Shown here: piece by piece, positions 27,490-31,371 of the stretch
Position numbering within the stretch: position 1 is the stretch's first letter
Layout of the letters: each line of letters opens with the position of its first letter
DNA from: Thermoanaerobaculia bacterium
GTDB taxonomy: Bacteria > Acidobacteriota > Thermoanaerobaculia > Multivoradales > J023
DNA length: 64,000 nucleotides
Direction of reading: 5' to 3'
Assembly (NCBI GenBank): GCA_030431255.1
Contig: JAUIJL010000022.1
Location: 83,583-147,582, forward strand
Notes under the pieces: model-generated
What the model saw: only the letters and a program-made list of their open reading frames with translations
Told to the model about the DNA's origin: nothing
Database searches by the model: none
Translations under genes and position numbers: made by a program

Positions 27490-29034
27490 TTACGCCAGCG
27501 GCACGCTTTGACCGGCCTGTACGTAGGCGTGCTCAAAGGCCAGCAAACCGAGCAGCGCGGGTACCGCCGCCACCGGACCGATCACCGGCGCCGCCACGGC
27601 GATCAGCCCCAGGACGATGCCCACTTTGTAGAAAGCACCGTATCGACCGGAGGTCATCTCATGGTGGGCCAATCGGGCATGGGCGCTGACGTGGGGCAAG
27701 GTGCTTTCTCCCCAAACCATCAGCAGGTGGGCCGCGCTGGAAATCGCCAAGATTCGGCCGAGCATCGGCACCAACCCGGGCTCGACGAACATCGCCACGG
27801 GCAGAAGGGCCGCGGAGCCGGCCAAGGCGGCCTGCACCAGCAGGTGAGCCGGCAGCAGAGGGTTCTGCCAAAGGTCCCGGGCCTTGGCTTGAGCGAAGAG
27901 GTATGCGGTGTAGACCGCGGTCATCGCCGCCAAGGGCACACCCACCACCGTCAAGGGTCCGAAGAAGCTTCCACCGGCGATCCCCGCCACGAAATGCACG
28001 GCCAACACCAAGCTATAGCCGGCGATGATGAACGCCCCCTTGACCAACCAGCTCTGCCATTGGGGACGGGTGAAGATGAAGAAGAATCGTTTGGGCTGCT
28101 CGAGATCGCTGATCAACAAACCGCCGGTGATCGCCAAGAACAGGCCCGCGACGACCGGAGTGAGGGTGCTCCACAATGGGCCGCCCGCATCGGCCTGACC
28201 GGTGAGCGCCAGCAGCGCCATCACCAGGTAGACGCCCGACGCCACCCCTTTGGTCAAGGTGTAGAGGCTGACCCGCCAATCCCACGGAGCCTTGTGGCTG
28301 ACGTCGTAGGAAAGCACCGCCGCGGCCGATGAGTTGTGGGCGTCGGGATGCCCCGCGCCGACCTCGTGGTCGCCCTGGGGCTGCTCGCTCCACATGTAGA
28401 GCCCGCCGTCGGGCCGACGGGCGGCCAAGGGATCGAGGGTCGCTTGATGGGCGCCGCGGTAGTAGAGCTTGGGGCGGGTATCTTTTTCCGGCCGACGCAC
28501 CGCCACCGGCTGGCGATTCACCATGTTGGCCACCCGCGACTCGGGATCGTTCAAATCGCCGATCAGGATCGCTTGGGTCGGGCAGACGGTGACGCAAGCC
28601 GGCTCGAGACCGACATCGACCCGATGGGCGCAGAAATTACACTTCTCCGCGCTGTGGTCTTCGGGATTGATGAAGATCGCATCGTAGGGGCAGGCGGCGA
28701 TGCACGCCTTACAGCCGATGCACGCCTTCTTGTCGAAGTCCACGATGCCGTCCGACCGGCGATACATGGCGCTGGTGGGGCAGGCGACCGTGCACGGTGC
28801 GTCTTCACACTGATTGCATCGGGTGACTTGGAAGGCGCGCCGCGCTTGGGGAAAGACCCCCACGTCCACGGACTTCACGTAGGTGCGGGTCACCCCGATG
28901 GGAACCTCGTTCTCCGACTTACAGGCGGTGGTGCACGCGTGGCAGCCAATACAGCTGGCATGGTCGATGACCTTGCCCCACCGAATAGGGCTCGGCTCAC
29001 CGTGGCCCGCGACCGCGGATCCCGGATCGGTCAT
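27490..29034 (-). CDS. Fused iron-sulfur and NrfD/DmsC-type membrane anchor subunit
   Basis: The ATG at 29034 has an AGGAG site, giving 514 residues. Residues 20-165 hold four Cys groups of the DmsB/PsrB type (CIGCHACTTAC, CNQCEDAPCTVACP, CIGCKACIAACP, CNFCAHRVDVGLEPACVTVCP), enough for four [4Fe-4S] clusters. After a linker, about eight or nine transmembrane helices from residue 250 onward form an NrfD/DmsC-like quinone-reactive anchor. In most systems these are separate proteins; here they are one chain. It would pass electrons between the cytosolic molybdoenzyme and the quinone pool. There is no Tat signal, in keeping with a cytosolic catalytic subunit. Confidence 0.9.
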   Translation of the reverse strand: MTDPGSAVAGHGEPSPIRWGKVIDHASCIGCHACTTACKSENEVPIGVTRTYVKSVDVGVFPQARRAFQVTRCNQCEDAPCTVACPTSAMYRRSDGIVDFDKKACIGCKACIAACPYDAIFINPEDHSAEKCNFCAHRVDVGLEPACVTVCPTQAILIGDLNDPESRVANMVNRQPVAVRRPEKDTRPKLYYRGAHQATLDPLAARRPDGGLYMWSEQPQGDHEVGAGHPDAHNSSAAAVLSYDVSHKAPWDWRVSLYTLTKGVASGVYLVMALLALTGQADAGGPLWSTLTPVVAGLFLAITGGLLISDLEQPKRFFFIFTRPQWQSWLVKGAFIIAGYSLVLAVHFVAGIAGGSFFGPLTVVGVPLAAMTAVYTAYLFAQAKARDLWQNPLLPAHLLVQAALAGSAALLPVAMFVEPGLVPMLGRILAISSAAHLLMVWGESTLPHVSAHARLAHHEMTSGRYGAFYKVGIVLGLIAVAAPVIGPVAAVPALLGLLAFEHAYVQAGQSVPLA

Positions 29035-29280
29035 TTGCACTCTCCTGGCCCGAGGGCCCTCACAGACAGATAAAAATAAGGACGGTTGAGCGTAGCCAGG
29101 GGCGGGGAGCGTGTCAAATACCTTTGCCGTTCCTCGGTGGGCGACATCACGACTTTGCACGACACTTCGGGATGGACGAGCACCTGAGCCGTCTCGTAAA
29201 CCTCAGCGACCGTCTTCCCAACCGCTCCCGAGCTGAAAAACCGCTTCTCGTGGGCTCTCGAAGCCGAAGATTGGAATCCA

Positions 29281-31116
29281 TTGAGTCGACTCGACCAGTC
29301 CCTCCGCGACCTGCTGACCCACCGTCGACTGCCGGTAGTGTCGGCGGTTCTGGCCATGCTGCTGTGCACGCCCGCGATCGACATCGGTTTCTTCTTGGAC
29401 GACTACATCCACCAAGCCGCGCTGACCCAGCCCGAGGAGCTGCCGGAGATCCACGCGTCTCCGGATCGGCTCTTTGAGTTCGTTTCCGCCGGCAAGAAGG
29501 TTCTCTCGGACTCCATGCCCTGGTGGGCGTCGGAGGACTTGAAGCTCGCCTTCTGGCGGCCCATTTCCGGGGCAAGCCATTGGTTGGACCATCATCTGTG
29601 GCCGGACAGCCCGCGCTGGATGCACATCCACTCGTTGCTGTGGCTCGGTCTGACGGCCTTCCTCGCCGCCCTCGCGTTCCGCCGGATCCTCGGCGATACG
29701 ACTTGGGTCGCAGGTTTGGCGGCCCTGCTCTTCGCGGTCGACGATGTCCACGCTTGGCCGGCTATGTGGATCGCCAACCGCAACGCTCTGCTTTCCGTGG
29801 CCTGGGCGTTGCTGAGCTTGGTGTCCTACGACGCCTGGCGTCGTCAAGGTCGAAGATGGGGGGCCGTCGCCACGCCGTTCTTTCTCTTGTTGGCGGTTCT
29901 GAGCGGCGAGTCGGCGGTGGCCGGAGGCGCCTATCTCCTGGCCTACGCGCTGACGTTGGAGCCCGGACCGTGGCGTCGGCGCCTGCTGCCGTTGCTGCCT
30001 TCGGCGCTGGTCGGGGTTGTTTGGTTGGCGATTTACAAATGGCTGGGATTCGGCGCTCGGGGCTCCTCCGCCTACCTAGACCCGCTGACCAACCCCTTTC
30101 AATTCCTCGGCGGGCTCATCGAGCGCCTGCCGATGCTGATGCTCGGGCTGTGGACCCCGATGCCGGCGGATGGCTATTTGCTGACCTCAGCCGATGGGCA
30201 GAGGTGGATGTGGGTCCTGGCGGTGGGATTGATGCTCGTGATCGTCGCGCTTTGCACACCCATGGTGCTCAATGATCGCCGAGCACGGTTCTTCGCCTTG
30301 GGGCTCATCGGATCGCTGATCCCCGCCTGCATTATCTTCCCGATGAATCGGCAGCTGCTCTTCGCCGGATTCGCCACCTCGGGTCTGTTGGCGCTCTTCG
30401 TCGAGAACGTTCAAAAGCGCCGAGCTGCAAGCCGAAAAACCGTTAGGTGGGGTACGCGCTTGGCCACGGTGACGGTCCTCGGGGTGCATCTGGTGCTCGC
30501 ACCACTGATTCTGCTCGGCACCCCTTCCCAGCTACATCTGCTGGCCAGACTCATGGACCGCGCGGTTCTCAGCCTGCCCGACGACGCGAGCATCCACGAC
30601 CAGAGGTTGATCGTCGTCCACGCCCCGGGCCATGTATTCACCAGCGGGTCCAAGGTCATGCAGGTCTTACGCGGCCGACCCACGCCCCGAGATCTTCTCG
30701 TGCTCTCGGGCACCATTTGGAGCCTCGAGATCGAGCGTTTGGACGATCATTCGCTGGTAGCTCGACCGGACGGTGGGTTCATGCCACCCGCTGGCCACGA
30801 TCCCACCGGCACGGGCGGGCACCTCAACCAGATGCGGGCCTTTGCCGGTTTCGACCTCATTTTTCAAGACTCGGGACGTCGGTCTAAGGTGGGAGATCGA
30901 TTCACTAGGCCGGGCGTCGAGATTGAGATCACCGCGCTGACCGAGGAGGGTCGTCCCGGCGAGGCGACTTTTCGATTTGATCGATCCTTGGAGGATCCCA
31001 ATCTGCGGTGGGTGCGTTGGCAGGACGGGATCTTCGTGCCCTTTGCGCTTCCACAGGTCGGAGAGTCGGTCACCATGCCGGCTCCGAGACTGTTCCCAGG
31101 AAAAAACGATCACTAG
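29281..31116 (+). CDS. Polytopic membrane protein, GT-C glycosyltransferase-like
   Basis: The 611-residue product has 10-11 transmembrane helices over residues 15-420 and a soluble C-terminal domain of about 190 residues. The phrase IDIGFFLDDYIHQA after the first helix is an acidic pair in the first periplasmic loop, as in GT-C enzymes of the ArnT/PMT/TMTC kind. The C-terminal part (VVHAPGHVFTSG) is unlike known GT-C tails. The track start is a TTG at 29281 with no good ribosome site, so the true start could be a GTG about 57 bases further on. It is divergent from the FeS/NrfD gene and convergent with the helicase gene. Confidence 0.7.
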   Translation: MSRLDQSLRDLLTHRRLPVVSAVLAMLLCTPAIDIGFFLDDYIHQAALTQPEELPEIHASPDRLFEFVSAGKKVLSDSMPWWASEDLKLAFWRPISGASHWLDHHLWPDSPRWMHIHSLLWLGLTAFLAALAFRRILGDTTWVAGLAALLFAVDDVHAWPAMWIANRNALLSVAWALLSLVSYDAWRRQGRRWGAVATPFFLLLAVLSGESAVAGGAYLLAYALTLEPGPWRRRLLPLLPSALVGVVWLAIYKWLGFGARGSSAYLDPLTNPFQFLGGLIERLPMLMLGLWTPMPADGYLLTSADGQRWMWVLAVGLMLVIVALCTPMVLNDRRARFFALGLIGSLIPACIIFPMNRQLLFAGFATSGLLALFVENVQKRRAASRKTVRWGTRLATVTVLGVHLVLAPLILLGTPSQLHLLARLMDRAVLSLPDDASIHDQRLIVVHAPGHVFTSGSKVMQVLRGRPTPRDLLVLSGTIWSLEIERLDDHSLVARPDGGFMPPAGHDPTGTGGHLNQMRAFAGFDLIFQDSGRRSKVGDRFTRPGVEIEITALTEEGRPGEATFRFDRSLEDPNLRWVRWQDGIFVPFALPQVGESVTMPAPRLFPGKNDH

Positions 31117-31135
31117 ATCCTCGAAAACGCCAAAA

Positions 31136-31371
31136 CTGGACGGGTCCTAGTTAGATCTCATCCAGAAATGGAACTTCGAGCCAACGTGAGGCTGGGTGGA
31201 CCGAGGACGGAAACGAAGCTTGTCTGAGCGGCACAGCCTATGAATCGGCTTAAGCTCCACCACATCAGCAATTTATGGCGGCTCCTCAGCGGTGGCGCGA
31301 GCTCGTAGTGACGCCCGCAGGCCACCCAGCCGACACCCTGCGAGCCCATTTCTGGACGGAACCTAGTTAGA
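31136..31371. repeat. Palindromic, MITE-like element between convergent genes
   Basis: Inner core: the ends TCCAGAAATGG (31161-31171) and CCATTTCTGGA (31346-31356) are perfect 11-bp inverted repeats. GGCTGGGTGG (31190-31199) and CCACCCAGCC (31322-31331) extend the pairing inward. The core is flanked by an imperfect direct repeat, CTGGACGG-xx-CCTAGTTAGA (31136-31155 and 31352-31371, 18 of 20 identical). There is no ORF inside. The right flank runs into the last codons of the helicase gene. It could be a small transposable relic, a structured RNA or a two-way terminator. Confidence 0.6.

What the first reader, a model, noticed from the sequence alone, without database searches (positions are those of the whole stretch)
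31136..31371. MITE-like palindromic element at a convergent gene junction
Seen: paired terminal repeats (11 bp and 10 bp blocks with matched spacing) enclosing about 195 bp without an ORF, flanked by a partial direct repeat of 20 bp that touches the helicase stop codon. This may be a non-autonomous mobile element, a structured RNA or a two-way terminator.
Basis: seen in the sequence. Interest (0 to 1): 0.5.

Follow-up and report, generated by a model that had tools for sequence, protein, structure and literature searches.

The report
Mobile DNA carrying conserved RNA hairpin
Between two genes of an acidobacterium sits one of about 43 copies of a 209-base jumping element that carries no gene but a hairpin-forming core whose base pairing has been kept, through changing sequence, in at least nine related genomes.

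Summary
The element is 31154-31362 (209 bp), with inverted ends GATCTCATCCAG / CTGGACGGAAC and a 7-bp duplicated target CTAGTTA (31147-31153, 31363-31369). The right copy overlaps the helicase stop codon. The genome (Acidobacteriota, probably Thermoanaerobaculia) holds 43 full copies. Four relatives lack the element at the helicase 3' end. So it is a MITE-like non-autonomous transposon; no mobilising transposase was found. Its 145-nt core (31190-31335) is unusual. A closing helix changes sequence between families but stays paired (11 of 11 pairs with two-sided changes). Fixed loop motifs and a middle of near-constant length (65-70 nt in 118 of 124 copies) are kept across genera. Nine of 40 genomes sampled in the order carry it, with 1 to at least 79 copies each, some in tandem arrays. 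Rfam has no match. Copies sit at gene ends, 19 in convergent against 3 in divergent gaps. Most likely: a DNA transposon family carrying a conserved structured RNA. Mobility is well supported; RNA-level function is inferred.

The parts
31147..31153 (+). left target-site duplication CTAGTTA
   Evidence: identical 7-mer at both ends; 7-bp duplications across copies 4.28/7 matched vs 3.15 +/- 0.20 in shuffled pairs, 0 of 5000 shuffles as high; coordinates
31154..31362 (+). complete MITE-like element, 209 bp
   Evidence: 43 full-core copies in G000; copies with both ends readable mostly 209-213 bp, or 221-223 bp with a short internal insertion
31154..31165 (+). left terminal inverted repeat GATCTCATCCAG
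   Evidence: consensus GRTYYCRTCCAG among copies; near-identical TIR TAGATCCCATCCAG 35 and 70 times in G003 and G006 vs 0 and 2 for the reversed control
31352..31362 (-). right terminal inverted repeat (CTGGACGGAAC on +)
31363..31369 (+). right target-site duplication CTAGTTA; last three bases are the helicase stop codon (TTA on +)
31190..31335 (+). conserved structured core (covariance model R2, 126 bits)
31190..31202 (+). 5' arm of closing helix P1
   Evidence: 11 of 11 P1 pairs with changes on both sides, 92.7% of cells paired
31320..31331 (+). 3' arm of closing helix P1
31221..31229 (+). conserved motif TGTCTGAGC (consensus TGTYTGAGC)
   Evidence: several of its columns invariant in 53 diverse copies
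31230..31296 (+). middle segment, 67 nt: variable sequence, near-constant length (65-70 nt in 118 of 124 copies)
31297..31303 (+). conserved motif GCGAGCT (consensus GCGAGYT)
   Evidence: GCGAG columns invariant in 53 diverse copies
31115..31146 (-). remnant: left end of a subfamily-B copy in reverse orientation, next to the same target site
   Evidence: matches left ends of B copies, e.g. L038, L039
31367..33808 (-). flanking gene: UvrD/PcrA helicase; its stop codon overlaps the right target duplication
   Evidence: Pfam UvrD-helicase 8.7e-84; orthologues end at the same place without the element
29281..31116 (+). flanking convergent gene, 611 aa, no Pfam match

Best explanation
This is a non-autonomous DNA transposon (MITE-like element) that carries a conserved structured RNA-like domain. 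Shown: a 209-bp unit with about 12-bp inverted ends, a 7-bp target duplication with consensus CTAGCTA, many copies of nearly the same length, no gene inside, no element at the orthologous site in relatives, and a core whose closing helices keep pairing through compensatory changes while loop motifs and the middle length stay fixed. Inferred: a DDE-type transposase acting in trans recognises the ends and joins them to CTAG-rich sites with a 7-bp stagger. Such sites are rare and contain stop-codon triplets, and insertions at stop codons do little harm, so copies accumulate at 3' gene ends. A new copy can land in the duplicated site of an old one, giving neighbours that share one site, as here. 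Read-through transcription from the flanking genes would produce the hairpin, most likely from the + strand in the window orientation. There the conserved fold probably acts as an mRNA 3'-end structure or as a protein-bound small RNA that helps the element persist.
For: Copies. Target duplication and ends; same ends in another genus against a near-zero control. Shared sites: the window itself, G006 forward TIR pairs spaced 217 bp (C224, C518), i.e. 210 + 7, and the flanks of L092. Absence in four relatives. No ORF, no recurrent transposase-like neighbour gene. Deletion derivative keeping both ends: 92-bp copy L158. Covariation: 252 cells changed on both sides vs 82 +/- 8 shuffled, score 0.511 vs at most 0.112 when slid; the top 7 covarying column pairs of all are P1 pairs. 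Near-constant middle length. Strand: GU vs AC pairs 25:9. Insertion context: 19 convergent vs 3 divergent, Fisher p = 0.015 against the window's neighbour pairs.
Against: No transposase with matching ends was found, so trans mobilisation is inferred. No promoter, terminator or transcript evidence. Arm pairing could partly be kept by template switching between inverted repeats. The strand preference is modest, not corrected for relatedness, and minimum free energies do not differ significantly between strands (p = 0.16). Order-level copies (G012, G020, G025) show no obvious TIR, so the core may also spread in another way.
Confidence: 0.8

Rival explanations
1. An ordinary MITE: the hairpin is only a by-product of the inverted repeats, kept by template switching or by transposase binding at the DNA level, with no RNA function.
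For: Ends and target duplications suffice for mobility; deletion derivatives without the core exist (L158); no transcript evidence.
Against: Core conserved across genera while the arms outside it diverge; loop motifs invariant in 53 diverse copies; middle length held at 65-70 nt; GU:AC 25:9; the core occurs without these TIRs in other families.
Confidence: 0.25
2. The core is a functional small RNA or protein-binding RNA in its own right (for example a guide or scaffold for an unknown protein), which has been picked up and spread by transposons.
For: Covariation, near-constant middle length, tandem arrays (L076, L082), presence with and without TIRs, up to at least 79 copies per genome.
Against: No partner gene recurs next to copies; narrow distribution (3 of 396 genomes sampled in the phylum); no Rfam relative.
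Confidence: 0.25
3. A bidirectional transcription terminator or 3'-end stabiliser between convergent genes, kept for the benefit of the flanking genes.
For: 19 convergent vs 3 divergent contexts and stop codons mostly within about 30 bp of the element ends; strong hairpin on both strands.
Against: No U-tract terminator at the element; absent at the same gene end in four relatives; target preference for CTAG alone could produce the location.
Confidence: 0.15
4. A REP-type palindrome moved by a tyrosine transposase (RAYT), or an IS110 element remnant with its bridge RNA.
For: Palindromic, intergenic, arrays; the bridge RNA is also a structured RNA in a mobile element (PMC11208160).
Against: Far longer than REPs (20-40 bp, PMC3733652), TIRs and 7-bp target duplication, no recurrent neighbouring recombinase gene.
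Confidence: 0.04

Closest known systems
Coxiella QMITE2, as summarised in the prokaryotic MITE review PMC10969869
   Same: Inverted ends, 7-9 bp direct repeats, a core of 113-145 bp, mostly in 3' untranslated regions, predicted stable transcript hairpin
   Different: Sequences were not aligned here; our core has covariation and motif conservation across genera and also occurs without the TIRs
ERIC and Correia elements (PMC10969869)
   Same: Short multicopy palindromic non-autonomous elements; transcripts cleaved or destabilised by RNases in known cases; ERIC can sit at 3' gene ends
   Different: Here a 7-bp CTAGCTA-type duplication and a conserved core with internal-loop motifs and a middle of near-fixed length (about 67 nt)
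REP / BIME sequences (PMC3733652)
   Same: Palindromic intergenic repeats, sometimes in arrays, 3'-end roles proposed
   Different: REPs are 20-40 bp, GTAG or CGTC tagged; this element is 209 bp with TIRs and target duplications
IS110 bridge RNA (PMC11208160)
   Same: Structured RNA with internal loops carried by a mobile element
   Different: IS110 elements encode their recombinase; our element has no gene, has TIRs and a 7-bp duplication

Membership tests
MITE | short, gene-free element with terminal inverted repeats | tested here: met
   209 bp, TIRs, no ORF of note
MITE | target-site duplication | tested here: met
   7 bp, 4.28 vs 3.15 +/- 0.20 matches, 0 of 5000 shuffles
MITE | dispersed multicopy in the genome | tested here: met
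   43 full-core copies
MITE | related autonomous element with the same ends | tested here: inconclusive
   none found by end BLAST, TIR pairs or the only DDE_Tnp_1 gene; other transposase families not searched
Known Rfam RNA family | covariance model match | tested here: not met
   no family at gathering score; only chance-level matches with E-value listing
Structured RNA | compensatory base-pair changes | tested here: met
   252 two-sided cells vs 82 shuffled; slid controls 43-72
Structured RNA | it is transcribed and folds | not testable with these tools
   no expression data
REP/RAYT palindrome | 20-40 bp palindrome | tested here: not met
   209 bp with TIR and TSD
REP/RAYT palindrome | associated Y1 transposase gene | not tested
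   Y1 family not searched; no recurrent neighbour gene
IS110 bridge RNA element | recombinase gene within the element | tested here: not met
   no gene inside, no recurrent neighbour
Intrinsic terminator | hairpin followed by a T run | tested here: not met
   none at the element

The most novel reading that the evidence does not exclude
The 145-nt core is a functional, protein-binding or regulatory non-coding RNA class specific to part of the Acidobacteriota. It is present in up to at least 79 copies per genome and spreads through more than one kind of mobile context (TIR elements and tandem arrays).
Probability: 0.25. Interest if true: 0.75.

Novelty: new variant of a known kind. Interest (0 to 1): 0.5.

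Why it matters
Bacterial MITEs are usually treated as selfish palindromes. Here a family keeps a base-paired core, loop motifs and a near-fixed middle length across genera, with or without its transposon ends, so it may be a structured RNA whose survival strategy is mobility. The family gives dozens of natural insertions at gene ends, so its effect on 3' ends can be tested directly.

Tried and rejected
Autonomous partner: end BLAST, inverted TIR pairs at kilobase range, recurrent neighbour genes, and the DDE_Tnp_1 and Transposase_mut families; one DDE_Tnp_1 gene in 10.2 Mb, without matching ends. Hits outside Acidobacteriota from the DNA pattern (Lysobacterales L101, Planctomycetota L115, Bifidobacterium L140) gave no model match and were set aside as chance. 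The single viral-contig hit L224 shows no P1 arms around the motifs and looks like coding sequence, so it was also set aside. Rfam matches with E-value listing were chance-level. Paper searches found no earlier description. The first gene of the junction is not next to the helicase in relatives, so the full two-gene empty site could not be compared.

Full report
What is there. A 209-bp unit, 31154-31362, starts with GATCTCATCCAG and ends with CTGGACGGAAC, and is flanked on both sides by CTAGTTA. The right CTAGTTA contains the helicase stop codon. Directly to the left, 31115-31146 is the left end of a second, truncated copy of another subfamily in reverse orientation, sharing the same 7-bp site. 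The similarity between 31116-31133 and helicase codons is not part of the element: the helicase C-terminus is conserved in relatives that lack the element.

It is mobile. BLAST with the element finds about 40 main places in the 10.2-Mb genome, and a covariance model of the core finds 43 full copies. Among 32 copies with readable ends the two flanking 7-mers match at 4.28 of 7 positions, against 3.15 +/- 0.20 when left and right flanks are shuffled between copies (0 of 5000 shuffles as high). Eight copies match at all seven positions. The target consensus is CTAGCTA. Lengths are narrow: mostly 209-213 bp, or 221-223 bp with a short insertion. The same ends occur in another genus of the family, 35 and 70 times against 0 and 2 for the reversed control, including forward pairs 217 bp apart, as expected for neighbours sharing one 7-bp site. 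At the orthologous helicase 3' end four relatives have nothing. A deletion derivative that keeps both ends exists (L158, 92 bp).

The core is conserved and base paired. The middle 146 bases (31190-31335) form a closing helix P1, an internal loop, a short helix P2 and an inner loop with TGTYTGAGC and GCGAGYT. In 53 diverse copies from at least eight genomes, all 11 P1 pairs show changes on both sides, with 92.7% of cells paired. For the whole structure 252 cells changed on both sides, against 82 +/- 8 after shuffling and 43 to 72 when partners are slid. In a scan of all column pairs the top seven covarying pairs are P1 pairs. The stretch between the two motifs varies in sequence but is 65-70 nt in 118 of 124 copies; the exceptions are two of 72, one of 57 and three deletion forms of 4, 7 and 10 nt. 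G-U pairs outnumber A-C mismatches 25 to 9, which favours the + strand as the folded strand, though the count is not corrected for relatedness and minimum free energies do not differ significantly between strands. Pairing of the arms could in part be maintained by template switching, so RNA-level function is inferred, not shown.

Distribution. Record titles of close hits name Acidobacteriota, one of them Thermoanaerobaculia. With the improved model 9 of 40 genomes sampled in the order have copies: 43, 52, 60, 79 (a lower bound, because only 79 candidates are scored per genome), 15, 18, 9, 4 and 1. In a phylum-wide sample of 396 only 3 had it, with stricter filters. Some genomes have tandem arrays of about 160-240 bp units (L076, L082, L083). 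Copies in the more distant genera keep the core but lack the recognisable TIRs. Rfam has no match.

Where copies sit. Using approximate gene calls, 19 copies lie between convergent genes, 3 between divergent ones, 18 between co-directional ones and 3 inside a called ORF; most adjacent stop codons are within about 30 bp of the element end. Window gene pairs are 14 convergent to 13 divergent, Fisher p = 0.015. CTAG is 4.5-fold rarer than expected in the window, so target choice plus avoidance of damage can explain the placement.

How it most likely works. A transposase acting in trans, probably DDE type because of the inverted ends and the fixed duplication, moves the element into CTAG-rich sites, which often contain stop codons. 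No such enzyme with matching ends was found; the genome has a single DDE_Tnp_1 hit, without the ends. Flanking genes would transcribe the copy, and the conserved fold probably acts at the mRNA 3' end or binds a protein. Architecturally it resembles QMITE2 of Coxiella and may work like ERIC or Correia elements (PMC10969869); what differs is the covarying, motif-bearing core that is also found without the transposon ends.

Noticed in passing
L076 1728-2389 (G001); L082 1320-1848 (G025): Tandem arrays of the core, four units and three units, with conserved spacers
   Followed up: partly
L042 about 2545-2653 and L169 around 4068: Two composite copies in which part of the core is replaced by the same foreign filler sequence (...GGCCTTAGAGGCGCGCGTCGGA...)
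   Followed up: no
G000 C43:114376-115227 (L230): Only one DDE_Tnp_1 transposase hit and no Transposase_mut hit in a 10.2-Mb genome
   Followed up: partly
window 1-64000: CTAG is strongly under-represented (49 observed, about 222 expected from base composition)
   Followed up: no
window 27490-29160, minus strand: 556-aa ORF that looks by eye like a fused iron-sulfur electron-transfer and membrane-anchor subunit
   Followed up: no
window 29281-31116: 611-aa probable membrane protein without Pfam match; homologues in G002 and G003 and a paralogue in G000 C26
   Followed up: partly
L227 (G002 helicase): The G002 helicase orthologue shows one TGA inside the matched frame
   Followed up: no
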